Source: a virus
Virus record (IMG/VR): IMGVR_UViG_3300009027_000001
Span: 1-63,877 of that record
DNA length: 63,877 nucleotides
Reading direction: 5' to 3' (one strand)
Part shown: positions 6,171 to 45,206 of the stretch, piece after piece
Position numbering within the stretch: the stretch's first letter is position 1
How the letters are laid out: each line of letters starts with the position of its first letter
The notes under the pieces: generated by a model
The model's input: only the letters and a program-made list of their open reading frames with translations
Databases searched by the model: none
Told to the model about the DNA's origin: nothing
Position numbers and translations under genes: made by a program

Positions 6171-8072
6171 ATGGCAGGCATAAAACTTGAAGGATTCCAA
6201 GGAGCCATTCCTAGAGTATCTCAACGCCTGCTACCCCCAATGGCAGCGTCAGAACTATCTAATACGAAACTGCTCCAAGGTGAATTACGGGGATACCGTA
6301 TACTGGTAGAGGAGGCAGATTTCTCTGCCGGAGCAGTATCGCCTGTCCGTCGAGCGTTTAGGATTCCGGATACCCCCACTGACTCATACCTTATATTTGA
6401 CACACGTGATGTTGACGTTATTCGATCCCCACTTGTGAACGATGTATGGGATAGGTATTTCTGGACAGGTGTTGGGACTCTACCCCAGATGAACTCCTCC
6501 GCCAACATTAAGGCGGGTCAGGTTAATGGCCCGTACTTACTTGGTGTGCCGGGTCCTGCTACTGGCCCTACTGTAACTCCCCCACCCGGCGATGGTGAAA
6601 GCGATGAGACGCGAGCTTACGTCTATACTTTCGTATCAGAGTTCGGTGAGGAGAGTCAGCCGTCACCACCTACCCTTGTAACAGGTGATGGGGGTATCCC
6701 GTGGCAGATTTCTAACATGGCTTCCACAATTAGCGGTGCGACGAGCCGTGCATTTCAAGGCGACCAAGGTCAGGCAGTAGTTAAAATCTATCGCACCGTT
6801 CCGGGTAATGCTTCGACTAGCTTCTTTTATGTCGGTGAGGTTAACTACGGTACTACATCTTATACAGATAATGAATCAAACGATACAGTAGCGTCTAACC
6901 CCCTACTAGAATCAACGACATGGGCACCTCCGATACCCGAAATGGAAGGCTTCGTCGTTATGCCGAACGGCTACCTTGTAGGTTGGGCTGGTCGGCGACT
7001 ACTGTTTAGTGAGCCTTATCGCCCGCACGCATGGCCCGCCGAATATGAACTATCTACCGAGTTCGATATTGTAGGTCTTGGTGTTGTTGGTGGTACATTG
7101 GTGATTGGTACTGAATCCCAACCGTACTTTGGTCAAGGTGTTAGTCCAGCGTCATTTACGACCCAGAAGGTCGATGCTGTTGAACCGTGCCTATCTCGTA
7201 GAGGTCTAGTTAGTACGACAGCTGGCGTACTTTATCCGTCGATCAATGGGCTTGTCCTTGCTAACAGCAGTGGCGTTCGAGTTATTACGGAAGACCTGTT
7301 TACAAAAGAAGAATGGGCAGACTGGCTCCCTGACCAGTTGTACGCCTCACAACTAGGCGTGCAGTACATCGCTTTCAACGGTCCTAGTACTGGGTTTGTA
7401 CTTGACCCAAAAGAACCTACTGCTCGCTTTGTACCATTGACCGGCTTCAATGAGATCGAAGGTATTGAGACTGACCGATATACTGGTAACGTATTTCTTC
7501 TTTCCAAAGACCGCATTTGGGAGTGGGATAGTGAGCGCACTGCCCAACGTATGCCGTGGCGCTGGCAAAGCAAGATGTACCAAACCCCGAAACCAGTTAA
7601 CTTCGGTGCGGCTCGATTACAGTTCATAACAGGTGATGTAACATTTGGGTATGAAATACGTGCTAAGTATCTCCCATACAACACCGCACTGATGACAGCT
7701 ATCGCATCCCAGCCGGGTAGTTTGGCACGCCTGAATACTATTAACGGACAAGTGTTAGGCGGTTCTCCGGCTTGGAACACCGGACTTGTAGCTGGATGGT
7801 CCGACGCTGAGATACGCCAACCCCTAGGTGGTAGCTTGGTATACCCTATAGCTCAACTGAGTGCTACAGAGAATACGGTCAGATTTTTGGTTCATGTAGA
7901 CTACCAGAATGGCGAAAGGAAGACTGTGTTTGACCGTACCATATCGAGTGAAGACATCTTTCGTTTGCCTACAGGATTTAAGAGTGATCTGTGGCAGATT
8001 GAAATGATTGGCAATACTACGGTGTACTCGTTACAGATCGCGGAGACTCCGAAACAGCTGGCTGGAATCTAA
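6171..8072 (+). CDS. Putative tail tubular/nozzle protein (gp12-like)
   Basis: A 633-residue beta-rich protein in the place where podoviruses encode the tail nozzle. Patterns include a V-Y-T-F-V-S-E-F-G-E-E-S-Q-P-S-P-P strand near residue 150 (a Fn3-like insertion often seen in this family), several G-W-A-G-R-R-L-L-F-S-E-P style propeller blades near residue 270, and P-S-I-N-G-L-V-L near 350. Strong cggagg ribosome site. The stop overlaps the start of the next gene (TAATG). It would form the lower tail tube. Confidence 0.65.
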   Translation: MAGIKLEGFQGAIPRVSQRLLPPMAASELSNTKLLQGELRGYRILVEEADFSAGAVSPVRRAFRIPDTPTDSYLIFDTRDVDVIRSPLVNDVWDRYFWTGVGTLPQMNSSANIKAGQVNGPYLLGVPGPATGPTVTPPPGDGESDETRAYVYTFVSEFGEESQPSPPTLVTGDGGIPWQISNMASTISGATSRAFQGDQGQAVVKIYRTVPGNASTSFFYVGEVNYGTTSYTDNESNDTVASNPLLESTTWAPPIPEMEGFVVMPNGYLVGWAGRRLLFSEPYRPHAWPAEYELSTEFDIVGLGVVGGTLVIGTESQPYFGQGVSPASFTTQKVDAVEPCLSRRGLVSTTAGVLYPSINGLVLANSSGVRVITEDLFTKEEWADWLPDQLYASQLGVQYIAFNGPSTGFVLDPKEPTARFVPLTGFNEIEGIETDRYTGNVFLLSKDRIWEWDSERTAQRMPWRWQSKMYQTPKPVNFGAARLQFITGDVTFGYEIRAKYLPYNTALMTAIASQPGSLARLNTINGQVLGGSPAWNTGLVAGWSDAEIRQPLGGSLVYPIAQLSATENTVRFLVHVDYQNGERKTVFDRTISSEDIFRLPTGFKSDLWQIEMIGNTTVYSLQIAETPKQLAGI

Positions 8073-17890: not shown

Positions 17891-18928
17891 ATGTGTTGCA
17901 GTTCGCCCCCACCGCCACCTGATCTTGGACCCAGCGCTGAAGCGTCGAAAGAAATTGCGGAGATGCAACAGCAAACTGCTAGAGAGCAGCTTGAATGGTC
18001 TAGAGAACAAGACACCATGAACCGAGAGCTACTCCAACAGGTGTTGGACGTACAGCTCCCGGCCATGCAGGAACAGTTTGAAACTGCATCGGCTGACCGC
18101 CAGCGCTACGAAGAAATGTTCCGCCCATTCGAGGATCAGTGGGCAGAGGAAGCGAAGAACTACGACACGCCGGAGCGCCGCGCACAGGAACGCGCCCGCG
18201 CCCTTGCCGACGTCAACACACAGTTTGATGCACAGCGCCGTAATGCCTTGTCGAGGCTTGAGTCCTATGGTGTCGATCCGTCGCAGACCCGCAACGCTGC
18301 ACTGGATGTCGGTGTACGCACCGCACAGGCCGCAGCAATGGCTGGTGCCGCTACGCAGGCCGACCGCCGTGTCGAGGACACTGGCCGGGCCTTGCAGTCT
18401 GACGTCATCAACCTTGGCCGTGGCGCACTGTCCAACGCCGCTGGCTTCTATGGTCAGGCCGTGAATGCTGGCTCTGCCGCACAAGGTAATGCACTCAACA
18501 CCACAGCCTCCGGCGCAAACGCTGTACAGTCCAGCCTTGGCTTCTCTGGACAGGCGTTGCAAGGTTATAACCAGAACGCCAACATTCTGTCACAGGGCTT
18601 TGGTAATCAGATGCAGTCATGGAACGCTCAACAGCAGCAGACAGCCGGTATGCTACAAGGTATCGGCGGTATAGCTGGTATGTTCATGGCAGACGGTGGC
18701 GAGGTAGAGAACCCTGTCGGTGGTCCGGCAGCGCCGTACACGGCTGATGGGCCGGTTGATGGGCCGGGCGATGGTTCGGGCGTGGATGACCGTGTCCCGG
18801 CCATGCTGTCACAAGACGAGTATGTCATCCCGGCAGACGTTGTACGGGCGAAGGGCGAGGAGTTCTTCGATAAGCTGCTCGAGAAGTACCACACACCTGC
18901 GTCACAACAGCGCAGAGGAGCGATCTAA
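17891..18928 (+). CDS. Internal virion/DNA ejection protein
   Basis: A 345-residue protein. The N-terminus (M-C-C-S-S-P-P-P-P-P) is followed by long Gln/Glu-rich coiled-coil helices (residues ~15-170), an Ala/Gly/Asn-rich region (~170-265) and a C-terminal segment with M-A-D-G-G-E-V, D-D-R-V-P-A-M-L-S-Q-D-E-Y-V-I-P and a closing F-F-D-K-L-L-E-K-Y-H helix. The latter pattern recurs in phage internal virion proteins. It heads the three-gene set with 18928 and the giant protein, analogous to the T7 gp14-15-16 or P22 ejection sets, and is probably packaged and ejected with DNA. Confidence 0.65.
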   Translation: MCCSSPPPPPDLGPSAEASKEIAEMQQQTAREQLEWSREQDTMNRELLQQVLDVQLPAMQEQFETASADRQRYEEMFRPFEDQWAEEAKNYDTPERRAQERARALADVNTQFDAQRRNALSRLESYGVDPSQTRNAALDVGVRTAQAAAMAGAATQADRRVEDTGRALQSDVINLGRGALSNAAGFYGQAVNAGSAAQGNALNTTASGANAVQSSLGFSGQALQGYNQNANILSQGFGNQMQSWNAQQQQTAGMLQGIGGIAGMFMADGGEVENPVGGPAAPYTADGPVDGPGDGSGVDDRVPAMLSQDEYVIPADVVRAKGEEFFDKLLEKYHTPASQQRRGAI

Positions 18929-20814
18929 TGGCGGGTAATTCAGCACTGGGCGGATTCGTTGAAGGTTTGCAAGGTGGTATAACCCACCGGCAGCAGTCGC
19001 TCCGCAACAAGAAGATTGACCGGATGCTTGACCAAGAAGGCAAGATGCAAGCGATGGCGATTGAAGGCAAGCAAATGGACATCAACAAGGTCCGTGAGCT
19101 GAAGGGGCTGGCACCCCGTGACTTCACCCAGTTCGAGGCGGACCAAGACCCCTACGGGTTCAAGCTCGGTGATTTCTTCAAGCCCCGCAAGCTGTGGCAG
19201 AACTTCAAAGACAACACTGGCTTCGGCGGCGGGTCTATGGATGCCCCTACCTCCCCGGTGCAGTCCAACGAAGCGGCCATCGAAGATATGACCCAAGGAG
19301 CACAAGGCTCCTCGATGGGTATGCAGGGTAACACCGATGACATGTCGCTGATGGCCGCCGCTGATGGCGGGCCAGTCAGGAAGATGGCTAACGGTGGGTC
19401 CGTCGAAGAACAGCTCGACGCAATGGATCGAACTCGCCGTCCCAACCCCGGCTCAGCAGAATCTCAGCTAGACCGCGAACTCGATCAGAAGACCCGTGAC
19501 CGTATGAACGCTCGACAGAATCCGAGCCGTACACGTAAAGCACTTAATACTGGTAAGCGTGTGGCGGGTAAGGCGGCTCGGCTAGCGCGTGCTGGTGCTG
19601 GTGTAGGCGGCGCTTTAGCTGGGGCGCAAGGTGCGGTCCGAGGGGGTTTTACTGATACTGAACAGATGCGCCGAGAGTACACCATGCCAGAAGCCTTGAT
19701 GGTGGATAAGGACGATTCTGATTTTGAAATCTTCCTAAAGGATTTAGGCGCTCGTGCTATCGGCGTCGGTAACTATGTCGGCGATGCTGCTTTGGATATG
19801 GTTGGCTTTGGACGTGATGAAGCACAAGCACAAGCTATCCGTAGCTCTGACGTTGCACGTCCAACACAGCAAGAACCATCGGTAGCTGCCCAGCCACAGG
19901 CGGCAACGCCAAGAGCTGCTGTCCAGCCGCCCGCTGCACCCCAAGCCCCCGAAGTAACGGGTGGCCCGAACCAGCTGGCCGACGCCCCGATCACCGATCC
20001 GGGTGAGATGCCGACGATGAACACCGAGGAGTGGGTAGCCTACCGTGCCGCCAGTGTCGAGAGTATGCTGATGCAGGGTATGTCTCTCCCTGAAGCCCAC
20101 GATGCTGTCACCTCGATGCAGCAGAAAGGGTTCCTCAACTACGGCACACAGGCTCTACAGATGCTCGCAGCTGGTGATCCGGCTCGGGCAGCGATGGCGC
20201 TCAAGGCTGCGTACCAGTACTTCCCGAACGGAGTTGATGTCAGATTTGGCATAACCAAGGACAAGCAGGGGCAGCCCGCTCTCGTAGCGATGGGTGCCAG
20301 CGAGCAGACCGGCGAATCTACCGGCGCTCCCATGCTAATCACTGGTGAGCGACTGGCCGTGATGATGGAGAACATGACCAATCCGGATGCGTTCCGTACG
20401 TGGACGAAAGACTGGCGTGAGTTTGAGCAAGACCTCCGTAAATACTACGAGATGGAGAAGCCGCAGGCTGAGAGCGAGAACATCTATCGTGACCGTATGG
20501 GCCGAGCAGCGCTCAATCGCTCCGAGGCTGATCTTGTCGGCGCTTATAACGCTGGACGAGGGGGCGGTCGCAAACGCACTGACATGGACCGTAACTCTGC
20601 TGCTCTCCGTGACTACGTAGCAGAGTCCGGACTGCTTGAAGGCATTGATCCACAGACCCAACGATACCTCACACGTGTCATGGAAGCGCTATACCTGAAT
20701 TACGATATGTTGCAGGGTGAGATCATCGAAGAAGTGATGGTAGCCTACGAAAACAACCAGCTACCACAGCTGCTAGAGAGCTATGGACTGTCCAATGCCG
20801 AAAGTGATGAATAA
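18928..20814 (+). CDS. Internal virion protein
   Basis: A 628-residue protein that overlaps both neighbours by one base (TAATG). It has a helical N-terminus, low-complexity Pro/Gln/Ala stretches near residues 300-350, and the short A-D-G-G-P-V and A-N-G-G-S-V motifs near residues 145-160. A Gly/Ala-rich hydrophobic stretch (~210-235) could insert into a membrane. The ordering before a giant ejection-type protein supports a role as the middle ejection protein. No enzymatic motif seen. Confidence 0.65.
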   Translation: MAGNSALGGFVEGLQGGITHRQQSLRNKKIDRMLDQEGKMQAMAIEGKQMDINKVRELKGLAPRDFTQFEADQDPYGFKLGDFFKPRKLWQNFKDNTGFGGGSMDAPTSPVQSNEAAIEDMTQGAQGSSMGMQGNTDDMSLMAAADGGPVRKMANGGSVEEQLDAMDRTRRPNPGSAESQLDRELDQKTRDRMNARQNPSRTRKALNTGKRVAGKAARLARAGAGVGGALAGAQGAVRGGFTDTEQMRREYTMPEALMVDKDDSDFEIFLKDLGARAIGVGNYVGDAALDMVGFGRDEAQAQAIRSSDVARPTQQEPSVAAQPQAATPRAAVQPPAAPQAPEVTGGPNQLADAPITDPGEMPTMNTEEWVAYRAASVESMLMQGMSLPEAHDAVTSMQQKGFLNYGTQALQMLAAGDPARAAMALKAAYQYFPNGVDVRFGITKDKQGQPALVAMGASEQTGESTGAPMLITGERLAVMMENMTNPDAFRTWTKDWREFEQDLRKYYEMEKPQAESENIYRDRMGRAALNRSEADLVGAYNAGRGGGRKRTDMDRNSAALRDYVAESGLLEGIDPQTQRYLTRVMEALYLNYDMLQGEIIEEVMVAYENNQLPQLLESYGLSNAESDE

Positions 20815-23800
20815 TGGCAACTTTCAAGGAGCGTTACGAGGAACTGTTCGGGCCAACGCCAGACTATGACCCGATAGCACAAACTGCCCCGGACGAGCTA
20901 ATCGGGCAGACTCGTCGCCGTGCGCTGGATATACAAGACGCTGCTCCTACTGCATCCCCGCGTCGAGCGGTTCCTATTCGTGACTTGTCTCCACCGGGTG
21001 AGGAGCAGGGTGCTATCTCTGGCCTGCTCAAGACAGGTGCCTCGAAGGTCGTGGCCGAACCGCTGGTCGGTGCAGCTGAGTACCTGACCCGGCAGACCAC
21101 AGGACGGCTCGGGTGGGAAGGCCCTACCGAAGCCCTGCAAGGAGTGCGGGACGATCTGGCCCAGTGGCGCGAAAGCGTCTACGCCCGGATGAACCCGGAG
21201 GTCATGGACATGGTGGGCCGGGAGCTGCTGACTCTCGACCCCGACAGGACTATCTGGCGTGGAAGCCCTCTCGATGTCGCCGAGGCTGTTGCATACAAGG
21301 TTATAGAACAGACACCCTCCCTGCTCGCTACACTGGTACCCGGCGCGATAATGATGCGGGCCGGTGCGATGGGCAAGGGAATCCAGTACCTTAGCGCGTC
21401 CGAGGCGGGTATATCACTGGGTGCTATACAGAACGAGATCGCTGACGGCATTAACGAGATGTCAGCTGATGAGCTGTCGGCTGAGTCGTTCCGTTTCAGA
21501 CAACTGATGGAGGAGTACGGTGACGAAACACAGGCGCGAGCCGACCTTATACGTGAAGCGCAGGGAATGGCACCCGTTGTCGGCGGTGTCGCTGTCGGAG
21601 CAATTTCAGCTGCCGCTGGTCGATACCTCGCACCTGTCTTTGACGATGCGGCTGGCCTTGGTTTCGGCCAGCGCGTCGGTCGAACTGCAATATCAGAGGG
21701 CCTTATCCAAGAAGGCCCGCAGGAATCTATCGAACAAATAGCCAGCAACATCTCCGCCGCTGTCTACGATGGTGACCGGGACTTGCTGGAAGGTGTGGCC
21801 GAGTCCTACGCACAGGGCGCTCTGCTCGGTGCCATCATGGGTGGTGGCGTCGGCGGTATACTCGGGCGTGGTCGGCAGGAGGAGCAGACGCCCCCAGAGC
21901 TGGACACGCCAGACGCCCCCAGTGCCTTCACGCCGGGCCGTGGTGGTCCCCGAGGGCCACAGCAGGCACTACCCCTCGACTTCGGTGAGGAGCAGCGCTC
22001 AGGCCCTATCACGCAGCAGGAGGATATGTTCGCCATACCGGACGAGCTGTTCGACGAGCAGGGCAACTACGTGGGTAACGTGGCTGGACAGGCCGCCGCT
22101 GCACAAGAGGAAAACATCGTTGATCCGGCTATCCGGGCGGCTATTCAGGCGAACATCCGTTCCGATCAGAAGATGGACGATATGTTCCAGACTAACCCAC
22201 AGCGGGAGCAGGAGTATCCCAGCCAGAACATACAGACTGAGATGTTCCCGAGGGCTGCTCCGACTGGTGGGTTACCAGCTCCTAACACCCGTCCTGTACC
22301 TGCTGAAGACCCGATGGCTCCGGAACAGCAGGAGATGCTGCCCGGCCCAGAGAAACGTACGCTTGGTAACAGGCGTACAGAGATGTATGACGCCCCAATA
22401 CCCGAGCCGCAGGTAGACATCTCGGCACAGATGGATCAGTTGGCACGGGGTATGCGTGATGGCGTCTATCTCGCTGCCGAGCAAGAGGTTGATCCTGCCA
22501 TCCTTGGGGACTTCCCGATGGTGCAGGACTTTGATGGTCGTGGCGGTGACATGATCTTCAAGGATGAGGAGACTGCCGACCAGTGGATGGAGGCGCTGGC
22601 GAACAGCAACCCCGAAGACCTGCAAGCCATCCTCGGTGAGATCACCGGGGCTGGTACTGGTAAGCCGATCGACGGTCGCCTTGCTGTACAGAAGATCGGA
22701 GAGAACGGAGGCGTCGAGCAAGAGACGCTGGTGTCCACCCTCGAAGAAGCACAACAGGTGCAGGAGGAGATGGGGGGTGAGACACGTGTACTGACGGCTG
22801 AAGAAGCTATAGCCCGCCGGGAGATGATGGCTGCTGACGACCTGTTTGCTGAGCCTGAACCAGAACCAGAGGGTACGCCGGGCGGCACACCTCGCACGGG
22901 TACTGGTCGTCACCGTGTGCGTTTCACTGATGATGCTGGGCAGGTCATTGAAGACCGCACGTTCAGCGACGTAAGGAGAGCGAACAAATATGCAGATCAG
23001 CTGGCCGACGAGTACCAGCTGGCTCAGCCTGAAGCTGATGCCCGCATTACTGTCACCCCGATACGCACTATGCCGAAGCGCAAGACCAAGCCTACTCAGG
23101 ATGAACAGAAGGCTGAGCTTGCCAAGCGAAAGAGAAAGGCTACGTATAAGACAGAAGGTGAAAAGGTAGCTGACGAAATACGCAGGCGTGTACCGTTCGA
23201 TGAGCGTCAGGATATGACTGAAGCGGCAGCTAAGGCCGGTACTCGAGAGGAAGCTGCACAGAACCTCCTACGCCTCGCCGCTAAGCAGATGGATGAAGAA
23301 CAGGCTCGCTCTATCGACGGGTTCTTCCCGCCTGACAGCTACGAGTTCAAGAACAAGCAGCTGAAGCAGGATTACACCGATGCGTGGCAGGCTCTCTACG
23401 AGGCTGACTTCATCGCTAAGAACAAGGCGGTCATTCCGCTTGAGTTTCGTGGGACTGTTGTCTCCAAGGCTAACCGAGACAAAAAGAAAGCCCTGAAGAA
23501 GATCGAGCAGGTACGGGAGGGGTCGAATCCCCGCCGTAAGGTCGAGAAGGCTGTCCGCGAAGCTCGATACACAAGTGAGGCAGCTGTTGCACAGTTGTCC
23601 TACAACGAACGTAAGATCGCTGAGCGCCTCGGGATCGAGATGCCCACCGATGCACAGAAGATGGAAGCGGAAATCCTGTCTGAAACACAGCAGCAGTTAG
23701 CAGACTTCCGTGAGTCGAAGATAGCAGAAGACGCTGAGGAAGATACCTACGTCGCCGCTATGGTGGAGGCTACCGCCCCCCGTACCAAGGACGACTCGGA

Positions 23801-26800
23801 CCAGCCCATCGGCGATACGCTGGAAGGCCCGGTCTACCGCTTCGACATGAAAACGACGAAGAAAGAACTGGAAGCACTGACCGAATCTGAACTGAACAAC
23901 GTCTTCGATGATGCGTTACGGTGGCGGCAGTCCACCAACAAACGTCTTAGCGATGGCCGCATCTCTGAAATGAAGCGAGAAATCACAACTCGCTCCGAGA
24001 GGATCAAAGAGATTATGCGGGCCGTAGTCAGTATGCGAAATAGCGCTGGCACGGAAGCACGGGCTAAAGGCGCATACATCGTCACCAACGTCACTAACAA
24101 GAAGGGTGGCGGCATCCGGCGTACGACTGTACGCAGTGGCCCGTTGACCTCCTCGTCAGAGAAGTACGAAGAAGGTGCTGACAAGCTGAAGGCTCGGGCT
24201 GAGAAAGCCAAAAAGATATACACCGATCTGTCGGACAACCTGAAGGGTGCCTTGAAACGTCTGAAGGCTGTGGCACCTGAGACTGATGAGTACGGCAACC
24301 TGACGGAACTCGGGCAGGATGAGGTCATGGGTATCTGGTGGGCTGAGTCGCTGGCTGAACTAGGGCAGGCTGTAGTTGAGAGCCGTAGGACAGACGACCC
24401 TGCTATGGAGCTGGCTAGTAAAATATCTACTGGCCTAAAACGTGTTGCCGGTAAGACCTCTGACCGTCTGTTTGGAACTGTCTTCGCCGACGCTGCTCGT
24501 CAGACCCTCATCATCAATGCGAAGGATATGGGCAAGGACCTCGCTACGATTGCAAAGCAGGTCAACAACTTCAATGACAAACTCGAGGCTGCTAACCGGC
24601 TGCACGAGGCCAAGAAAAAGTGGGTCAAAGACAGCGACTACAAGCAGTTCATTAAGCCGATCATCCGTAAGTTCCACGAGTCGTACTGGAACAACAAGGG
24701 TACGTACTACCCGACGCTGGCTGAAGCGGCAAACCTCAAGTGGGTACTAGACAACTACCGAGCGCAGGGCAAGAAAGATGACTTCTACCTGCCGCTGCGA
24801 CGGGTGCTGGAAGATTTCGGCTTCAAGTTCAAAAACAATACGCTAATCGTCAATGAGGTTGACGGCGAGTTCGACTTCACCCCGAAAGACGCTCACCTGA
24901 TGAACCGTTTTCGCCGTAGCGACCCGATCATTATGGACAGGACAGTCGTACGCCGTGAGACGGATAAACCTTACGAACCTGTCACCCTTACATACAGGCG
25001 TCCTGAAGGGGAGCTGGACAAGCGCATCGCTGAGCGTGAGAAGCGTACGGAGAAAGATCAGTTCATCGCTAAAGAGGAGCTGGACTCGATCAAGCATGTC
25101 CGTGCATCAGCCATCTTTGCACGGTTCCGTAAGATCGTGGACAACCCGAAGACCACGAGAGATAAGCTGGTTGATGCCGAGCTAAAGCTGCTTGAAGACC
25201 TAAAGAAAGAGGGTTTCCTGACCAACGTCGGCGCACAGATGGTGACTATTAAAGTACCTGACCGTCCGACGATTAGCCTCCGTCGTTCTGCACGAGCGCT
25301 GGACGACGGTATACTGACTAAGAGGGAAGCCCGCAGTCGCATGGCCTCCATCCGCAAGTCATACACCAAACCCCTATACAGGCACGAAAGTAAGGTCGGG
25401 CGCTACGCTGGTAGCGTTGCCGGTACAGCTATTGCTGATACCGAATCTGAGTGGGTATACAAAAAGCTACCGGGCTTTTTGCTTAAAAACATTAAGCCTA
25501 AACGGGTATACACTACAGCAGCTAACAAACTGCATGAGAAAATCAAGTATTCAAACTCAAGAATCTCGCTTAACGAGGCACTCGACATAATCATCGAGAC
25601 TCTACCTTCGTCTGACCCCTTGGGTAAGGTCGCTAGACAATTACGCAGCGTAGATGTCACCCGTGGTATCGGCCTCGGATATGCGTGGGGGATGAAGTAC
25701 GCGGTCGGTGGTTACTGGAATGAGTCAGGGCGAGTAGACATTGACTTTGAGTATTTCTACGGAGAAGAAGCGCTAAGCAAAACGAATAAAGATTTGGTTG
25801 ACGCCCAGTTTCTACAGGTAGTACTCCATGAAATTGCCCATGCAGCAACAGTAGAATCTATAGATCGCAGTCAAACGGCTGAGGCTATCATAGATGAACT
25901 AATACAGCAGGGGCAGCAAGCGTGGGGAAGACAACATACCGGAAAAATTCTGGAACGCATTCTTATTAACGATAAGTTCTTTAAGCAAAGGAAGTTTAGT
26001 GACGTAGCATCAAAGCAAGAACTCGCTGAAATTTTTACAGCTGAAATAAGTTTACAAGAGCCGAATAAAATTGCTTACATCAACAAGGTCGGTGACGACT
26101 TTGAAGTAATAGTTAAAGCCGCAAAAGACAAGCCCTACGGTTTTACCAATCCACATGAGTTTGTTGCTGAAGCATTTTCAAATCCTGAATTTCAAGATTT
26201 CTTAAAGGCTACCAAGTTCAACAAGAAGAACTGGCTGTGGGATGAATTCAAGAAAGCTGTGTTTAAGATTCTCGGTATTAAGACTGACGAAAACCTTGAC
26301 ACCATTTGGGATGTTGTACTAGCAGCAACGCCAGCGTTGACCAGATACGCAAACAGTTATGACCCGAGTAAATACCATTGGGAACCGGGTGGTAAAAAAG
26401 ATATGCGACCGTACGGAGAATACGTACAAGAGGCTCGTAAAGATATAAACAGCCATCGTCAAGCATACGACGATGCAGGTAATCAGCTTGGCGACTTGCT
26501 GAATGATCGCTACCGTTTGCGCGGGGCCAATACTGTACTTCAGTCACTCATCAGCTCACTGCCTGAACGCAGCGCACTAGGGATTACTGCTCGCAAACTG
26601 GCTGAGCTGGACCTAAGCGATGTTACGGTTCGCTGGGATTGGACTAATCTCATCAAGAACCCCGACACTAATGGTGTTTACCGTGGCAAACATCGCCGTG
26701 TAATCCTTGCACGTAAGGATGGAATGTCTGGACACAAGCTGGCTCGTGTCACGTTACACGAGCTGATGCACGCTGCTACGCAGGAAAGCCTGCAACGCAA

Positions 26801-29800
26801 CCAGACGCTTCGTTCACTGATGACAGATGTCCAGAGTGAAGTACGCCAAAAACTCATGGAGCAGTTCCCTGTTGGTAAACTGCCGTATGGTTTGCGCCCG
26901 CAGGATCAGGTCGATGAGTTCGTAGCAGAAATGTTCTCGAACGAAGCTATGCAGCAGGCAGCTAAGACCACTATGCTTGATAGCCGGATGTCTCTGTGGA
27001 GCCGGTTCAAAGACTTGGTCAAGCAGTTACTTGGTTGGGTGGGGGACTACGAAATTTCAGCTTTCGATATGGTTATGGAATTGCAGCCGCAACTATTCGA
27101 GTATGCTGAGTTAGACAACCCCAACGCCCCTGACCTATATCACGGAGACGTAGCATTAGGTAATAAAGCTCGTGAGGTTTGGAACAGAGCTAAGATGACC
27201 TACGACATCGAAAACCGAGCACGTACGGCTGCAACACAAGGCGCGACAATCTTCGGGCGTGGCAAGTTGAGCCATGCGTTCCACTCCATGCGCCAGCTGC
27301 GTGAGCGTTATGAACAGTACTTCGGCGGGAAAGAAGGTCCACTGGCGAAGTACATGGATGCGTTCAACGCTCGCAACTCCATGAACAATGAACTGATGCA
27401 GATGCCTGAACGCCTGTCACGTAAATGGTCAGAGTTCGAGCAGAAGCACGGTGTTAAGGTAGCTAACGATTTCAGTCAGCTTGCTACTGAAGCTACCATG
27501 CACACGCTCGACCCGAGCAAGGTCGCTGGGCATGAGAGGAACAAGAAGTCTGCAAAGGCTCAGCCGACTATGTATCGTGAGCTGCGTGCCCGGTACCAAG
27601 CGTTGCCGCAAGACTACAAGGATTTGTGGGCAGAGGTTACAGACTACTACCAGTCATCGCTTGAACAAGAAACCGGCCTGATGATGCTCAATGCCGTACG
27701 CGGAGTCGTCACCAAGGGAGCCGGTGAGACGATGGACCTTGGGACGTTCAACCGCAAGTACAACGAGACGAACATCCTGAAGTTCAGCACGCAGGAAGAA
27801 ATCTTGGCTGAGTTCGGTGAGTTCCTTGGTGAAGATGCTGCAAACCTCGCCAAGTTCATACAACGGGTGGCTAACGTACCGGCCATGAAACAGGGGGTCT
27901 ATTTCCCCCTCATGCGCTACGGGGAGTACGCTGTCTACGCCAAGACCATGCGTGACAAGAAGTACTTTAAGGACAGCCAAGCTGCACGGAAGTACGCAGC
28001 CGACCAGCGTCTTGAAGACCCGACCTACTCTGTCAACACACGTGAGGAAAGTGATGGACGGTGGAGCGTGCAGGTCACGGAGAGTGCTTTCGTCATGGGT
28101 GAGACTATCACCGAAGTGATGGAGAAACGCCAACAGCTGGTAGACGAAGGCTACGACTGGGTTGGAGATGTCGGACGCAAGCTAGAGATGCCGAGAGAGT
28201 CGGCGATCACCTCGAACGCAGCGCTGTCCAGCATCCTTGAAACGCTGTCGGATAATGCAGCTGCACAAAACGCGATCAAGCAGTTCTACTTGCAGTCGCT
28301 TTCCGATCAGTCGTTCCGTAAGAGAGAAATCAAACGACAGAACCGCCGGGGTGTGGACTACTTCACGCAGCATCGCAACTTCGCCAACTACGCTCGCCAG
28401 TCTGCTTACTACAGGTCACAGCTGAAGCATGGCTGGCAGATGGCGAAGGGGCTGTCTGACATGCGTGACTTCCTGAAGGACTACCGACAGGGCGCGAGCA
28501 AGATGTCTCGCGTCCAACTGGACAACGTGTACGAAACGCTGAAGACACGTGATGAGAAGATGACCGACCCAGTACAGCTCCACAAGGCTGTGCGGGGCGG
28601 CATCGCTCTGACCCAGTTCTACATGCTGACCAGTGCTTCCTACCACATGATTAACAGCACGCAGCCGTGGATGGTGTCGCTGCCCACGATGGGAGGTCGC
28701 CACGGCTGGGGCCAAGCCTTCGCAGCTATGAAGGGAGCGCAAGCCCTCATCAAAGACCCGATCTTCAGTCAGATAAAAGAGTCTAAGGGTGGTCTGGCGC
28801 TGCTGAAGAAAGGCAACCTCGCTGCCGAGCGTGCCTTCGGCGTTTTCGATCAGCTGCGTGATAGTCTCAAGGCCAACGACGCTCGTGCGGACGAGCACCT
28901 CGAGATGCTTGACAAGCTACGTAAGACAAGCGTGTTGGAAGTCTCCCCGCTGACGGAGCTGCGAGAGATCGCAACGGGCAAGGAGTCGTGGACGACGAAG
29001 GCGATGGATGCGTCACGTGCGATGGCGCACATGGTCGAAGTGAACAACCGCGTTCTGACGGCTATCGCTGCCTACGATTTGGAGTACGCCCGCCAGAAGA
29101 ACGGGGGGGCAGGCGAGGAAGCAGCACGAGAAGCGGCCACGCAGTACGCCGAGGACATGGTATCGCAGACGCAGTTTGACTACTCGACGGCCAACAAGCC
29201 GCCCGCGTTCCTGCGTTTCCCAATCGTGTTCCAGTTCATGCAGTGGTCGCAGCACATCTACGCACACATCATCCGCAACACGGCAGCAGCTCTGAAGGGC
29301 GACAAGGACGCCGCCAAGATTCTCGGTGGCGTTCTCGGTACCCACGCTGCCGTAGCTGGCGCACTGGGTGTGACGTTGCAGCCGATCAAGATGGCCTTCG
29401 GTCTGGCGATGATGGCGCTGGGCGATGAAGACGAGCCTTACACGTGGCAGAACGCCCTCAGCGGTGCGACCTTCGACCGGGTCACTACTTCGGCGATGAA
29501 CGAATTGTTTGGTACAACTGTTTCAACAGTGCTCGGCAAGGGGCTACCCGCCGGGCTGGGCATTGATCTCTCTACGCGCATGTCTTTGGGAACCCTGTTC
29601 TTCATCGACCTGCGAGGTGACACCCCTGAGTCGGTGGCTGGTTCACTGCTCTCATCCTTCGGAGGTGCGAGCGTCAACCAAGCTCTGACGTTTGGTAGGG
29701 GTATACAGTACATGGGTAGCGGCGACATAATGAAGGGCCTTGAAGTCTTCTCCCCCAAATTCCTTCGTGACATTCTCCGGGCTGGCCGGTTTGCGTCCGA

Positions 29801-30194
29801 GGGTTTGGTGAACAACTCCGGTGACACTGTGCTCGACACCAGTGCGCTAGGGTTTTACGAGACGGCATTGCAGGCAGTAGGATTTACTCCAACAGCTATT
29901 GGACAATTCTACGAAGGGCAAGCAGCAATCAAAGATAAAGAAGCCTACGTACGGAAGCAAAAAATCAGGTTGATGAAAGACTTTCGTACATCTAGTGCAG
30001 CCGGGCGTCGTGCGATCATAGATCAGATCGTTGAGTTTAACAGCTCATTCCCACAGGAAGCGATCACCCGGTCTGCGCTCCTTCGCAACCTGAAGGGCAA
30101 ACTCGAGCGTGAACTTCAATACGAGCGATATGGAGCAGCGATAGATGAGAAGAAAGCAGCACTCTACGCCGGTTATGGCGAACCCTACCGTTAA
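20814..30194 (+). CDS. Giant internal virion/ejection protein with two HExxH domains
   Basis: A 3126-residue protein. An N-terminal region with Ala/Gly-rich hydrophobic stretches (residues ~165-360) could form a membrane channel. Charged disordered linkers follow (~360-800) and then mostly helical regions. Two related metallopeptidase-like domains sit at about residues 1540-1850 and 1900-2110: H-E-I-A-H-A-A-T near 1672 and H-E-L-M-H-A-A-T near 1982, each followed by E-F-V-A-E-(A/M)-F-S-N. A C-terminal R-F-P-I-V-F-Q-F-M-Q-W segment near 2800 resembles the PLxRFG region of large podovirus ejection proteins. It probably enters the host with DNA; peptidase activity is inferred. Confidence 0.75.
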   Translation: MATFKERYEELFGPTPDYDPIAQTAPDELIGQTRRRALDIQDAAPTASPRRAVPIRDLSPPGEEQGAISGLLKTGASKVVAEPLVGAAEYLTRQTTGRLGWEGPTEALQGVRDDLAQWRESVYARMNPEVMDMVGRELLTLDPDRTIWRGSPLDVAEAVAYKVIEQTPSLLATLVPGAIMMRAGAMGKGIQYLSASEAGISLGAIQNEIADGINEMSADELSAESFRFRQLMEEYGDETQARADLIREAQGMAPVVGGVAVGAISAAAGRYLAPVFDDAAGLGFGQRVGRTAISEGLIQEGPQESIEQIASNISAAVYDGDRDLLEGVAESYAQGALLGAIMGGGVGGILGRGRQEEQTPPELDTPDAPSAFTPGRGGPRGPQQALPLDFGEEQRSGPITQQEDMFAIPDELFDEQGNYVGNVAGQAAAAQEENIVDPAIRAAIQANIRSDQKMDDMFQTNPQREQEYPSQNIQTEMFPRAAPTGGLPAPNTRPVPAEDPMAPEQQEMLPGPEKRTLGNRRTEMYDAPIPEPQVDISAQMDQLARGMRDGVYLAAEQEVDPAILGDFPMVQDFDGRGGDMIFKDEETADQWMEALANSNPEDLQAILGEITGAGTGKPIDGRLAVQKIGENGGVEQETLVSTLEEAQQVQEEMGGETRVLTAEEAIARREMMAADDLFAEPEPEPEGTPGGTPRTGTGRHRVRFTDDAGQVIEDRTFSDVRRANKYADQLADEYQLAQPEADARITVTPIRTMPKRKTKPTQDEQKAELAKRKRKATYKTEGEKVADEIRRRVPFDERQDMTEAAAKAGTREEAAQNLLRLAAKQMDEEQARSIDGFFPPDSYEFKNKQLKQDYTDAWQALYEADFIAKNKAVIPLEFRGTVVSKANRDKKKALKKIEQVREGSNPRRKVEKAVREARYTSEAAVAQLSYNERKIAERLGIEMPTDAQKMEAEILSETQQQLADFRESKIAEDAEEDTYVAAMVEATAPRTKDDSDQPIGDTLEGPVYRFDMKTTKKELEALTESELNNVFDDALRWRQSTNKRLSDGRISEMKREITTRSERIKEIMRAVVSMRNSAGTEARAKGAYIVTNVTNKKGGGIRRTTVRSGPLTSSSEKYEEGADKLKARAEKAKKIYTDLSDNLKGALKRLKAVAPETDEYGNLTELGQDEVMGIWWAESLAELGQAVVESRRTDDPAMELASKISTGLKRVAGKTSDRLFGTVFADAARQTLIINAKDMGKDLATIAKQVNNFNDKLEAANRLHEAKKKWVKDSDYKQFIKPIIRKFHESYWNNKGTYYPTLAEAANLKWVLDNYRAQGKKDDFYLPLRRVLEDFGFKFKNNTLIVNEVDGEFDFTPKDAHLMNRFRRSDPIIMDRTVVRRETDKPYEPVTLTYRRPEGELDKRIAEREKRTEKDQFIAKEELDSIKHVRASAIFARFRKIVDNPKTTRDKLVDAELKLLEDLKKEGFLTNVGAQMVTIKVPDRPTISLRRSARALDDGILTKREARSRMASIRKSYTKPLYRHESKVGRYAGSVAGTAIADTESEWVYKKLPGFLLKNIKPKRVYTTAANKLHEKIKYSNSRISLNEALDIIIETLPSSDPLGKVARQLRSVDVTRGIGLGYAWGMKYAVGGYWNESGRVDIDFEYFYGEEALSKTNKDLVDAQFLQVVLHEIAHAATVESIDRSQTAEAIIDELIQQGQQAWGRQHTGKILERILINDKFFKQRKFSDVASKQELAEIFTAEISLQEPNKIAYINKVGDDFEVIVKAAKDKPYGFTNPHEFVAEAFSNPEFQDFLKATKFNKKNWLWDEFKKAVFKILGIKTDENLDTIWDVVLAATPALTRYANSYDPSKYHWEPGGKKDMRPYGEYVQEARKDINSHRQAYDDAGNQLGDLLNDRYRLRGANTVLQSLISSLPERSALGITARKLAELDLSDVTVRWDWTNLIKNPDTNGVYRGKHRRVILARKDGMSGHKLARVTLHELMHAATQESLQRNQTLRSLMTDVQSEVRQKLMEQFPVGKLPYGLRPQDQVDEFVAEMFSNEAMQQAAKTTMLDSRMSLWSRFKDLVKQLLGWVGDYEISAFDMVMELQPQLFEYAELDNPNAPDLYHGDVALGNKAREVWNRAKMTYDIENRARTAATQGATIFGRGKLSHAFHSMRQLRERYEQYFGGKEGPLAKYMDAFNARNSMNNELMQMPERLSRKWSEFEQKHGVKVANDFSQLATEATMHTLDPSKVAGHERNKKSAKAQPTMYRELRARYQALPQDYKDLWAEVTDYYQSSLEQETGLMMLNAVRGVVTKGAGETMDLGTFNRKYNETNILKFSTQEEILAEFGEFLGEDAANLAKFIQRVANVPAMKQGVYFPLMRYGEYAVYAKTMRDKKYFKDSQAARKYAADQRLEDPTYSVNTREESDGRWSVQVTESAFVMGETITEVMEKRQQLVDEGYDWVGDVGRKLEMPRESAITSNAALSSILETLSDNAAAQNAIKQFYLQSLSDQSFRKREIKRQNRRGVDYFTQHRNFANYARQSAYYRSQLKHGWQMAKGLSDMRDFLKDYRQGASKMSRVQLDNVYETLKTRDEKMTDPVQLHKAVRGGIALTQFYMLTSASYHMINSTQPWMVSLPTMGGRHGWGQAFAAMKGAQALIKDPIFSQIKESKGGLALLKKGNLAAERAFGVFDQLRDSLKANDARADEHLEMLDKLRKTSVLEVSPLTELREIATGKESWTTKAMDASRAMAHMVEVNNRVLTAIAAYDLEYARQKNGGAGEEAAREAATQYAEDMVSQTQFDYSTANKPPAFLRFPIVFQFMQWSQHIYAHIIRNTAAALKGDKDAAKILGGVLGTHAAVAGALGVTLQPIKMAFGLAMMALGDEDEPYTWQNALSGATFDRVTTSAMNELFGTTVSTVLGKGLPAGLGIDLSTRMSLGTLFFIDLRGDTPESVAGSLLSSFGGASVNQALTFGRGIQYMGSGDIMKGLEVFSPKFLRDILRAGRFASEGLVNNSGDTVLDTSALGFYETALQAVGFTPTAIGQFYEGQAAIKDKEAYVRKQKIRLMKDFRTSSAAGRRAIIDQIVEFNSSFPQEAITRSALLRNLKGKLERELQYERYGAAIDEKKAALYAGYGEPYR

Positions 30195-31782
30195 ACGGAA
30201 GGACAAATCAGGTCGGACCCAGTACTACAAGACCTGCCCCAAGTGCGGAGATCAAACCCTTCGCAGAGGTAACAAGGCGCAGTCAGGCAAGGTACGTTGG
30301 AATTGTCGTGGCACCACAGGTGATCGCCTGCACTGCTACTCGACGACCGACCCCAACAAACCGTACTCAGGTCGTAACAGCCGTAAGGATGCGGACAAAA
30401 ACCCACAGTTTCGCCGCAAATTAGGCGGAGTAAAACGCTTCGTCATAACAGCTGCACAGAACGCTACCCCTGTTCACGAACCATTCTTTATGTCACTTCT
30501 GACATACTGCAAGCATAACGATGCTGAATTGGTGGTGATTCCTCTCCGGTACAAAAATCCGACCTCGCAGTGGGTTGCATCGCAGGAGAACCTAGAATCG
30601 TGGGCCAGTGAACTACGCCCCTACCTCTACAACCAGCGCAAGAAACTCAATGAGAACCTTGTACTGCTCGGAGACATCAAGACGCAGCCCACCGCTGTCA
30701 ACCCCTTGCAGGGGTTCGAGAGCCTGACACACGGCGAGTCAGCGATCCTCGGACACACTAAACTGCAACTCGAAACCATCGCCACCCCATCCCACCGCTA
30801 CCCCAAGATCATTACCACCACCGGGGCAGTCACCATGCCGAACTATACGGACAGCAAGGCTGGCAAGAAAGGGGAGTTCCACCACGCTCTGGCCGCCGTC
30901 GCAGTAGACATCATCGGTAAGAAGTTCAGTATGAGACAGCTGAACGCAACCAAGGATGGGTCGTTTATCGACCTCGATGTTGCGTACCACGCAACAGATG
31001 TAAAGAAGGCACCAAGAGCATCAGCGCTGGTCTTCGGCGATACTCACCGAGCCGTCATGGACAAGACGGTAGAGAACGTCACGTTCGGGCCGGGGGGTAT
31101 GGTGGAGCAGCTTGACCCCGAACATCTGGTATTTCACGACCTCCATGACGGTAGCTCCACCAACCACCACACAAAGAACGACCCATTTGCTCAGGTGGCT
31201 AAGCGTGTGGACCTCCTCCATCTTGTCAGGGATGAAGTCATACAAGACGTCATGTGGCTGGCGCGTGTCTGTGCGGGGCGCTCAGGCGTTCTGGTGGCCT
31301 CCAACCACGATGATTTCCTAGCCCGGTGGCTGCGAGAGCAGGATTGGAGGCGCGACCCAGAAAATGCGGAGTTCTACCTAGAAACTGCACTACACCTTGT
31401 CCGAGAAGTCCGTCAGGGAAACGCCGTACCTCACCCGTTCACGTACTGGGTCGAACGATTGAAGAAGAACGCTCCCATCAGGTGTCTGAAACGTGATGAG
31501 AGTTTTGCGCTAAATAATGTCGAACTGTCGCTGCACGGTGACAAAGGGCCAAACGGAACAAGGGGTTCCAGAAAGAACTTGCGTCGGATCGGGGTCAAGA
31601 CCATCATAGGGCATAGCCACTCCCCCGGCATCGAGGAGGGGTGCTACCAGACCGGCACCAGCACCCCGCTGCGGCTGGACTACAACCAAGGCCCGAGCAG
31701 CTGGATGCACTGTCACTGTGTTCTGTACGCCAATGGCAAACGTAGCCTGCTGTTCATCATCGACGGAGAATGGCGACTGTGA
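30145..31782 (+). CDS. Zinc-ribbon metallophosphoesterase-like protein (T5 A1-like?)
   Basis: A 545-residue protein overlapping the giant gene by 50 bases. GGAG nine bases upstream supports ATG 30145; ATG 30175 (M-A-N-P-T-V) is possible. A zinc ribbon (C-P-K-C ... W-N-C) lies near residues 34-54. Calcineurin-type metal motifs follow: G-D-T-H near residue 300, S-N-H-D near 390, and G-H-S-H near 490. This zinc-finger plus phosphoesterase order recalls the T5 A1 DNA-transfer protein as I know it. The neighbouring ejection gene fits a role in early infection, such as DNA entry or host DNA degradation, but this is inference. Confidence 0.65.
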   Translation: MRRKQHSTPVMANPTVKRKDKSGRTQYYKTCPKCGDQTLRRGNKAQSGKVRWNCRGTTGDRLHCYSTTDPNKPYSGRNSRKDADKNPQFRRKLGGVKRFVITAAQNATPVHEPFFMSLLTYCKHNDAELVVIPLRYKNPTSQWVASQENLESWASELRPYLYNQRKKLNENLVLLGDIKTQPTAVNPLQGFESLTHGESAILGHTKLQLETIATPSHRYPKIITTTGAVTMPNYTDSKAGKKGEFHHALAAVAVDIIGKKFSMRQLNATKDGSFIDLDVAYHATDVKKAPRASALVFGDTHRAVMDKTVENVTFGPGGMVEQLDPEHLVFHDLHDGSSTNHHTKNDPFAQVAKRVDLLHLVRDEVIQDVMWLARVCAGRSGVLVASNHDDFLARWLREQDWRRDPENAEFYLETALHLVREVRQGNAVPHPFTYWVERLKKNAPIRCLKRDESFALNNVELSLHGDKGPNGTRGSRKNLRRIGVKTIIGHSHSPGIEEGCYQTGTSTPLRLDYNQGPSSWMHCHCVLYANGKRSLLFIIDGEWRL

Positions 31783-43306: not shown

Positions 43307-44026
43307 TTAGTGCGGATACCGTCTATCCAATTCCAAGTCGTCCTCCATGACAGCACAAGTTAGCAGCACTTGGTTAATATCGTCCATGAACGGCAAGTGG
43401 CGAAACTGCGTTAGCTGAGTCGCGCCCCAACCTTCAGGCATAGATGACTTCAACTTCTGCGCTGCCATGCGCTGCGTGTACTTCCTTTCAACGAGAGAAG
43501 CAAACTCGGGCCACGCACGATACAACTGCCCCGGCGTGTTCACCGGATTGATACTCAGGGTTTCACCATTACTCATCATAAAGTTACCCCCGCCCCAACA
43601 GATACCACGTGCATAGTTGTCGAACTTACGTTGCCAGAACGCCAACTGCTTGTGCCTAACAACCCACGCTAATACCTTGCTCCGAAGCGTGGGGTCTGTA
43701 ATGTCCGTATCCTTAATCTCTATCTCAGGATACGGCCATGCGTCATACGAATGACCAAAGGTTAAAGTGATTTCGGGTTTCTTGTTTAGGAACTCGCGCT
43801 TTTCTGCCAGCGACGGACAATGAATCGTCAGTTTGTTGCAGTACTTCAAAGCGTTCTTCTTACCAAGTAACTCCATCGCATCACGTTCATCCTGTGACCA
43901 ACCGAACCAGTAGTACTCCTCGGGGTTAAGCGTGTTCTTGTGTATCGTGTGTCGATACTTGTTGAACAACGCTGTACCCCGAGAAAGCATGAGTGACCTA
44001 CCGGATTGCGATAGTCGGCTACTCAT
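43307..44026 (-). CDS. Hypothetical protein, last gene of early block
   Basis: A 239-residue protein, starting at an ATG that overlaps the VWA gene's stop by eight bases (ATGAGTAG). It contains a P-E-E-Y-Y-W-F-G-W-S segment near residue 35, Trp-rich patches and a C-terminal acidic end. No family recognised. Tight coupling to the HExxH/VWA gene suggests it may be an accessory or target protein of that module. Another ATG at 43990 is possible. Confidence 0.55.
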   Translation of the reverse strand: MSSRLSQSGRSLMLSRGTALFNKYRHTIHKNTLNPEEYYWFGWSQDERDAMELLGKKNALKYCNKLTIHCPSLAEKREFLNKKPEITLTFGHSYDAWPYPEIEIKDTDITDPTLRSKVLAWVVRHKQLAFWQRKFDNYARGICWGGGNFMMSNGETLSINPVNTPGQLYRAWPEFASLVERKYTQRMAAQKLKSSMPEGWGATQLTQFRHLPFMDDINQVLLTCAVMEDDLELDRRYPH

Positions 44027-45206
44027 CGTCCAGTTCCACGTAGATCGTTTCACCGACAGGGGATTCCATTCCCTCGCTGGTGCTGCACCAGATCGTCGGG
44101 TAGCCCGGATCGTCTGGGAAGTCACCGTACATATCAGTGAAGTAAACTACGCAGTCAGGGCGAATACCTTGCTCCTCAATCCATACGAAGGGCGGCACAA
44201 AACTCGTCCCTCCTCCCCCACCGAGCGGTGGGATATTGTCTCGCAAAGAGTCACCCGCGTACAACTCATACACTTTGTTGATACGGGCATCGCAGCCGAT
44301 CAGCGTCACCTGTTGCGGGGTGCAGTCGAGCAGGATGTTGTCGCACTCACCCAAACCCTGTGCCATTTCCTTCTGTGACATAGAGCCTGAAGTATCGACA
44401 ACGAACACGATGTGTCCTGCCGAGAAGCCTGTGTAGCTAGGCATCACTACACCCTGTGACAGCAGTCGGCGACGATGGGGTCGCGTCCAAGTCGTAGCCT
44501 CACGGCCAGCACACTTGTTCATAGACTTACGCAACTTCTCCGTCCACTGTACTTTCGGGTCTAACACCTGTTCGACAAACCGTTGCAGGTCAGCAGGTAA
44601 CTTACCCTGCGCCTTGGCAGCGTCGGCAGCACTTGCAATCACACGTTTCATTTCTGCCTCAGTCGATTGAGCATTAGCAGGAATGTGGTGATCTAACGTA
44701 CCACCTTCGCCCGGCCCCGGCCCCTCTCCATCATTGGGGTCGTCTTTCAGCTTGCGATAGACTTCATCTGCCATATCCTGCGAAGTGAACCGGGACGGAT
44801 CATGCAGGATGTTGCTAGGCATCTTACCGATCTTGCAGTTGTACAGCATATCGTTAATGACGTAATCGCCAGCGCGATTCCATCTGCCGTGGTCAAAGGG
44901 TTCACCGTCGAAGCCCGTGTCTTGATACGCCTTGCTTCGCGCCATGTGCATCCACATTGCGTGGGCAATCTCATGGCACATAACAAAGACACGCTCAGGC
45001 AACGAACACTTGGCGAAGAAGTCCTCGTCGAACCAGATGTTCTTACCATCGGTTGCTGCCGTTTCGTTTCCCTTCATGTGCGGGGGAAACACATTGTCGA
45101 ACTTACCGACCTTGATGTTCATGTGGTCGAGCATGATCGACGCAAAGAACGGCACGTGCAACAGCATGGCAGTCTTTACTTCGGTGAGTTTGGTATTCTC
45201 ACTCAT
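44019..45206 (-). CDS. HExxH metallopeptidase-like plus VWA-domain protein
   Basis: A 395-residue protein. The N-terminal domain has H-E-I-A-H at residues 78-82 (zinc-type HExxH) and resembles DUF2201-type putative metallopeptidases; a flexible Gly/Pro/Asp segment follows near 160-175. The C-terminal von Willebrand A domain carries the MIDAS motif D-T-S-G-S near residue 270 and a G-G-G-T loop near 330. Such VWA proteins work with MoxR-type AAA ATPases, and one is encoded just upstream (47017-48102). Probably an adaptor recruiting the ATPase to a target; catalysis is unproven. Good gaggag ribosome site. Confidence 0.8.
   Translation of the reverse strand: MSENTKLTEVKTAMLLHVPFFASIMLDHMNIKVGKFDNVFPPHMKGNETAATDGKNIWFDEDFFAKCSLPERVFVMCHEIAHAMWMHMARSKAYQDTGFDGEPFDHGRWNRAGDYVINDMLYNCKIGKMPSNILHDPSRFTSQDMADEVYRKLKDDPNDGEGPGPGEGGTLDHHIPANAQSTEAEMKRVIASAADAAKAQGKLPADLQRFVEQVLDPKVQWTEKLRKSMNKCAGREATTWTRPHRRRLLSQGVVMPSYTGFSAGHIVFVVDTSGSMSQKEMAQGLGECDNILLDCTPQQVTLIGCDARINKVYELYAGDSLRDNIPPLGGGGGTSFVPPFVWIEEQGIRPDCVVYFTDMYGDFPDDPGYPTIWCSTSEGMESPVGETIYVELDDE

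What the first reader, a model, noticed from the sequence alone, without database searches (positions are those of the whole stretch)
20814..30194. Giant ejection protein carries two tandem, related HExxH domains
Two regions near residues 1540-1850 and 1900-2110 share the order L-H-E-(I/L)-x-H-A-A-T-x-E-S, then E-F-V-A-E-(A/M)-F-S-N (a possible third ligand glutamate), then L-W-x-x-F-K and V-x-x-x-L-G. This indicates internal duplication of a gluzincin-like peptidase in a protein thought to be ejected into the cell. A peptidase delivered with DNA could cleave a host target or the protein itself.
Basis: partly seen in the sequence, partly recalled or inferred. Interest (0 to 1): 0.7.

Follow-up and report, generated by a model that had tools for sequence, protein, structure and literature searches.

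The report
Phage ejection protein with doubled metallopeptidase
A giant protein that this virus of bacteria probably carries in its particle and injects with its DNA has two side-by-side copies of a zinc-peptidase domain (the same general kind as the catalytic part of anthrax lethal factor), where its sampled close relatives have one; the domain is already known in such phage proteins, but this adjacent pair looks unique in the sample searched.

Summary
ORF 20814-30194 (3126 aa) holds two homologous HExxH domains: A (aa ~1583-1848; H1672, E1673, H1676, Y1775, E1782) and B (aa ~1897-2105; H1982, E1983, H1986, Y2025, E2035). Profile-profile comparison of non-overlapping sets gives 99.9%, E 8e-32. 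Both are lethal-factor-like (M34-type) zincins: the family profile hits lethal factor (E 5e-8), and both AlphaFold models have lethal factor domain IV as best or tied-best match. HExxH, the downstream Glu and a Tyr are kept in 100, 100 and 96 of 100 domains. The domain is the 'MPTase' of phage polyvalent proteins (Iyer 2017) and occurs in solved phage ejection-machine proteins.

What is unusual: 26 other giant homologues sampled by their C-terminus have exactly one MPTase, nearly always 440-532 aa before the C-terminal 'tail-700' domain. B sits at that position (454); A is an extra upstream copy (764). A shares a ~50-aa insert with the single copy of the nearest relative, so the duplication is not recent; its history is unresolved. 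I favour post-ejection self-processing, with host cleavage as main rival. Nothing here shows activity. Verdict: new variant (adjacent tandem pair) of a known kind.

The parts
20814..30194 (+). Giant polyvalent / ejection-type protein, 3126 aa, about 350 kDa
   Evidence: Single open frame; C-terminus matches NCBIfam NF032893 tail-700 'PLxRFG' (E 4e-82), Pfam LPD39 and PHROG 10089 'DarB-like antirestriction' (E 3e-54)
25560..26357 (+). MPTase copy A (aa 1583-1848), the extra upstream copy
   Evidence: HMM hit; AlphaFold model mean pLDDT 77.6, VIA best match lethal factor 559-775 (Z 6.5)
25827..25841 (+). Copy A HEIAH (H1672, E1673, H1676)
   Evidence: HExxH in 100 of 100 family domains (presence of HExxH was also a filter for that set)
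25944..26123 (+). Copy A insert between HExxH and EFVAE (aa 1711-1770), shared with L007 only
   Evidence: H-to-E spacing 110 in A and 103 in L007, 45-63 in the others measured; pairwise score of L007's insert: 55 against A, 21-29 against the others
26136..26138 (+). Copy A Tyr1775, 7 residues before Glu1782, as in lethal factor
26157..26171 (+). Copy A EFVAE; E1782 is the predicted third zinc ligand
26502..27128 (+). MPTase copy B (aa 1897-2105), at the family's canonical position
   Evidence: 454 aa from HExxH to tail-700 start; family 440-532; AlphaFold mean pLDDT 88.9; lethal factor domain IV Z up to 7.4
26757..26771 (+). Copy B HELMH (H1982, E1983, H1986)
26886..26888 (+). Copy B Tyr2025, 10 residues before Glu2035
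26916..26930 (+). Copy B EFVAE; E2035 is the predicted third zinc ligand
27327..27686 (+). LPD39 domain (aa 2172-2291)
   Evidence: PF18858, E 4e-9, above gathering score
28083..30155 (+). tail-700 / PLxRFG C-terminal domain (aa 2424-3114)
   Evidence: NF032893, 277 bits, cut-off 100
17891..18928 (+). Neighbouring virion protein, homologue of phage JC1 gp64 (virion-associated by mass spectrometry)
   Evidence: 36% identity, E 2e-30; JC1 Table 6 in PMC9144972
6171..8072 (+). Virion protein, homologue of JC1 gp61 and of the solved chain 8jov_A

Best explanation
The ORF encodes a polyvalent protein packaged in the virion of a short-tailed phage and ejected with its DNA. It carries two lethal-factor-like (M34-type) gluzincin domains in tandem. 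In each, two His of HExxH and the first Glu of the downstream EFVAE bind zinc, the Glu of HExxH activates water, and the conserved Tyr before EFVAE helps stabilise the transition state (inferred from lethal factor). Shown here: homology of the two copies, conserved site residues, fold match, and a fixed position of the single-copy domain just ahead of LPD39 and tail-700 in relatives. Inferred: after ejection the MPTase cuts the giant protein, separating the N-terminal part from the C-terminal packaging/conduit part; the tandem copy adds a second cut or a second specificity. The pair arose by an old duplication (or import) in this lineage: B is the positional orthologue, A the extra copy.
For: A and B are homologous. 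HExxH and both Glu of EFxAE are invariant in 100 domains and Tyr is in 96. The profile hits an internal virion protein, 9sfn (4e-19), PhiM1 tetrameric ejection protein gp48 (3e-14), lethal factor (5e-8) and N4 vRNAP (0.002-0.003). Both models have lethal factor domain IV as best or tied-best match. 26 other homologues found by their C-terminus and long enough to include the site have exactly one MPTase, at 440-532 aa before tail-700 in all but one. In 252 pairs of relatives the MPTase is more conserved (mean 72%) than its N flank (50%) and C flank (60%), as expected for a constant role in the particle rather than a shifting host target. Copy A matches the family consensus at every strongly conserved column compared.
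Against: No cleavage or metal binding is shown by anything here. Iyer et al. (PMC5512222) note that N4 vRNAP, which has the same kind of domain, is packaged unprocessed. Z-scores to lethal factor are 6-7.5, below the level the tool calls decisive, and Foldseek alone gave no E below 0.001. The 252-pair comparison is biased, because those loci were found through MPTase motifs. Between the window and L007 the trend reverses: MPTase 31%, flanks 42-79%.
Confidence: 0.45

Rival explanations
1. The MPTases are effectors: after ejection they cleave host proteins (defence, envelope or regulatory targets), and duplication widens the target range.
For: Lethal factor and other M34-type enzymes act on partner proteins in trans (own knowledge). 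Between the window and its nearest relative L007 the MPTase segment is the most divergent part (31% against 42-79% in the flanks) and has no DNA-level match (blastn gap 25180-27258), which fits diversification or module exchange. Iyer et al. list this option.
Against: Near-universal presence at a fixed distance from the C-terminal domain and higher conservation than the flanks in most pairs argue for a constant partner.
Confidence: 0.27
2. The domains are mainly architectural parts of the ejection machine (core or conduit), with catalysis secondary or lost.
For: The same domain lies in solved virion proteins: PhiM1 gp48, 9sfn internal virion protein, 23sg gp10. The position is fixed relative to the C-terminal domain. 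Copy B departs from consensus at three strongly conserved non-ligand columns of the EFVAE helix region.
Against: Complete conservation of the downstream Glu and of HExxH, plus Tyr in 96 of 100, is hard to explain without catalysis.
Confidence: 0.2
3. On origin rather than function: the pair was made by import, one copy coming by recombination from another phage lineage rather than by duplication in place.
For: In the 100-domain tree B groups with L087/L088 (100/96) and A is nearest to L007. The window and L007 share DNA-level similarity on both sides but not across the MPTase segment.
Against: In the smaller tree A, L007 and B form one group, 82/83 support. B differs from L087 by as much as its flanks do (38% against 36-39%), as vertical descent predicts.
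Confidence: 0.3

Closest known systems
MPTase (zincin) domains of polyvalent proteins (Iyer et al. 2017, PMC5512222)
   Same: HExxH plus a Glu on a later helix, variable insert between the two helices, located in giant phage proteins with LPD domains; multi-copy proteins already reported
   Different: Multi-copy proteins are described as often interspersed with other domains; here the copies are adjacent, 310 aa apart, and the other close relatives sampled have one
C1 domain of N4 virion RNA polymerase gp50 (PMC12633501)
   Same: HExxH domain just ahead of a large helical C-terminal domain in a ~3,500-aa ejected protein; profile match E 0.002-0.003
   Different: One HExxH domain is described, fused to an RNA polymerase; no polymerase family was matched in the window protein
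Anthrax lethal factor domain IV / M34 (Pfam ATLF, Pro-Pro endopeptidases)
   Same: HExxH, Tyr, then EFxAExF; Tyr-to-Glu spacing 7 in copy A; best fold match of copy A and tied best of copy B
   Different: Below Pfam ATLF thresholds; packaged in a phage giant protein; both copies keep HExxH, whereas the second zincin-like domain of lethal factor lacks it (own knowledge)
PhiM1 tetrameric ejection protein gp48 (8vb2; PMC11440229)
   Same: Same HExxH domain (residues 378-509, E 3e-14) in a structurally solved ejectosome protein
   Different: 1,263 aa, one copy; the authors labelled residues 268-528 endolysin/exotransglycosidase-like
Bcep22-like (Lessievirus) DarB-like giant proteins, e.g. phage JC1 gp69
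   Same: Similar place after homologous virion genes (gp61, gp64); gp69 was found in virions by mass spectrometry
   Different: JC1's C-terminus is not detectably homologous to the window's; its HExxH at 3479 of the stop-to-stop frame is of a different branch (HEAFH) and matched only weakly

Membership tests
Polyvalent-protein zincin MPTase (Iyer 2017) | HExxH followed by a Glu on a later helix | tested here: met
   Both copies; 100 of 100 family domains; helices at both motifs in the models
Polyvalent-protein zincin MPTase (Iyer 2017) | Part of a giant multidomain phage protein with large-polyvalent-protein domains | tested here: met
   LPD39 above gathering score, tail-700
Polyvalent-protein zincin MPTase (Iyer 2017) | Zincin core: helix, three-stranded sheet, two helices | tested here: met
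   B model: helices, three strands (52-55, 68-71, 76-79), HExxH helix 87-109, EFVAE helix 147-156; A similar plus insert
M34 / ATLF (lethal factor-like) | Match to Pfam PF07737 over its cut-off | tested here: not met
   No match for the window record; 8 of 50 relatives match weakly, best E 4e-4
M34 / ATLF (lethal factor-like) | HExxH plus EFxAExF with a Tyr 7 residues before the ligand Glu | tested here: met
   Copy A spacing 7; copy B spacing 10 (motif present, spacing differs); PhiM1 gp48 and lethal factor 7
M34 / ATLF (lethal factor-like) | Same fold as lethal factor domain IV | tested here: inconclusive
   Best or tied-best matches, Z 6.5 (139 aligned, 4.8 A) for A and 7.4 (149 aligned, 4.5 A) for B, below Z 8; supported by profile hit E 5e-8
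M34 / ATLF (lethal factor-like) | Zinc bound by His, His, Glu in measured geometry | not testable with these tools
   Model coordinates are not released; ligands inferred from alignment
Phage ejection protein | Present in the virion and delivered to the cell | not testable with these tools
   Homology and synteny only

The most novel reading that the evidence does not exclude
The two tandem MPTases are both active but with different specificities, making ordered cuts that take the ejected giant protein apart in the new host cell, a polyprotein-like programme delivered by a phage particle.
Probability: 0.15. Interest if true: 0.65.

Novelty: new variant of a known kind. Interest (0 to 1): 0.37.

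Why it matters
The role of the HExxH domains in ejected phage proteins is an open question: self-processing, host attack, or structure. A natural tandem pair, with the canonical copy and the extra copy identifiable by position, gives a clean system in which each copy can be inactivated separately. The fixed spacing of the domain from the C-terminal tail-700 domain and its near-universal presence make it likely to be a core part of the ejection apparatus. It also suggests that the endolysin-like region of PhiM1's ejection protein is really a zincin.

Tried and rejected
Sequence search of the whole protein against PDB gave nothing, and single-protein Pfam scans found no peptidase family over threshold; only the family profile revealed the relationship. 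Megablast and tblastn of the MPTase region against named phages gave nothing. Foldseek alone gave no significant hits; VIA re-alignment was needed. VIA placed N4 vRNAP on top for B but over residues 2373-2592 with 6.6-6.9 A rmsd, not over its HExxH domain, so I do not rely on it. Search for other tandem proteins: of 134 MPTase-bearing ORFs only the window has adjacent copies; L048 has two copies about 1,900 aa apart. Trees with 100 and 21 domains disagree on where B falls, so the duplication history is left open. A claim that the MPTase is generally hypervariable was tested and rejected: only 4.8% of pairs have it below both flanks. A direct C-terminal link to JC1 gp69 was tested and not found. 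The record is an isolated virus record, so genome relatives could not be drawn.

Full report
Observation. The frame 20814-30194 is open for 3126 codons. It has two HExxH motifs (aa 1672, 1982) and two EFVAE motifs (aa 1782, 2035). The two regions align with a score of 146, against 33.9 +/- 5.3 for shuffles, and as profiles built from non-overlapping sets at E 8e-32. Two further contigs with other metagenome ids contain the same arrangement at 99.995-100% identity.

Setting. The record is a 63,877-base virus record. It encodes phage head, portal/adaptor, terminase and DNA polymerase genes. The ORF at 6171 is homologous to a solved virion-associated protein (8jov_A, E 7e-58) and to gp61 of the short-tailed phage JC1; the ORF at 17891 is homologous to JC1 gp64. 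JC1 gp61, gp64 and the giant gp69 were found in virions by mass spectrometry (PMC9144972). In the window the giant gene follows the same virion genes. Its C-terminus matches tail-700/PLxRFG, LPD39 and the DarB-like PHROG, and directly matches giant proteins of TM29, POI1126, PBC5, Skulduggery, Itty13, SopranoGao and Vibrio phage 1F273_PE002, although not JC1 gp69 itself. Packaging and ejection are therefore well-founded inferences, not demonstrated.

What the domain is. A profile of 46 relatives finds an internal virion protein 9sfn (E 4e-19), PhiM1 tetrameric ejection protein gp48 (3e-14), gp10 of 23sg (2e-13), lethal factor (5e-8) and N4 vRNAP (0.002-0.003). In the alignment the lethal factor EFxAEAF motif falls on EFVAE of the family, and its Tyr lies 7 residues before that Glu, as in copy A (10 in copy B). 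AlphaFold models (B pLDDT 88.9, A 77.6) have lethal factor domain IV as best (A) or tied-best (B) structural match. Among 100 non-redundant domains (chosen to hold HExxH), both Glu of EFxAE are invariant, Tyr is kept in 96, and the Trp of LWxxF in 92. In the C-terminus-sampled set, which was not chosen for HExxH, every MPTase hit also has an intact HExxH. So both copies look catalytically competent; nothing tests it. That E1782 and E2035 are the third ligands is inferred from this alignment and from general knowledge of lethal factor.

What is unusual. To avoid sampling by the domain itself, relatives were collected by their C-terminal 700 aa. 26 distinct other homologues that are long enough have exactly one MPTase. 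The distance from its HExxH to the start of tail-700 is 440-532 aa in all but one (645, the most distant). B lies at 454, A at 764. B is thus the positional orthologue and A the extra copy. In the larger, domain-biased set (134 ORFs) one other protein has two copies, far apart. Iyer et al. [quoted passage not shown] so multiple copies are known, and the adjacent pair is the variation.

History. The nearest relative, L007 (49-60% identity over most of the protein), has one copy. That copy and A share an insert between HExxH and EFVAE (H-to-E spacing 103 and 110; 45-63 in the others measured). A and the L007 copy thus share a derived feature, so either the split between A and B is older than the split of the two phages or one copy was imported. 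The DNA of the window and L007 matches on both sides of the segment but not across it (gap 25180-27258), and protein identity falls from 55-79% in the surrounding parts to 42% just ahead of A and 31% in A. The trees do not settle it: with 100 domains B joins L087/L088; with 21 domains A, L007 and B form one group at 82/83, and a strict A+B pair is not rejected (p-AU 0.28).

Mechanism. The fixed place, near-universal presence and higher conservation than the flanks (72% against 50% and 60% in 252 pairs; biased sample) favour a constant role tied to the C-terminal packaging/conduit part: I favour self-processing after ejection. Iyer et al. note that P1 DdrB is cut before packaging but N4 vRNAP is packaged unprocessed, which argues for action after ejection where there is action. 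Host cleavage is the main rival, a structural role the second. None of these steps was shown here.

Novelty. The domain, its presence in ejected giant proteins, its likeness to lethal factor and the proposed roles are published. As far as my searches went, new here are the adjacent pair, the identification of canonical and extra copy, the fixed spacing rule, and the link to three solved virion/ejection proteins.

Noticed in passing
PDB 8vb2 chain A, residues 378-509 (phage PhiM1 gp48): Matches the MPTase profile at E 3e-14 with an HExxH and the downstream EF motif, inside the region the authors call endolysin/exotransglycosidase-like (268-528); it is probably a zincin.
   Followed up: partly
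window 30145-31782 (+): Gene overlapping the end of the giant gene by 50 bases; matches PHROG 1745 'DNA transfer protein' (E 7e-153), with several named-phage matches annotated as phage T5 A1-like, unusual company in a short-tailed phage of this size.
   Followed up: partly
window 44019-45206 (-): Separate putative metallopeptidase with VWA-like domain (Pfam DUF2201_N and DUF2201), HEIAH motif at nt 44975.
   Followed up: partly
L048:5795-18469 (+): 4,225-aa giant protein with two MPTase domains about 1,900 aa apart (interspersed type).
   Followed up: no
L207 (Vibrio phage 1F273_PE002), giant ORF, HELIGH at residue 2674 of the stop-to-stop frame: HExxxH variant motif like that described by Iyer et al. 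in a giant homologue with the same C-terminal domain.
   Followed up: no
window 25180-27258 compared with L007: No DNA-level similarity across the MPTase segment although both sides match at 66-75% DNA identity: a possible exchange point.
   Followed up: partly
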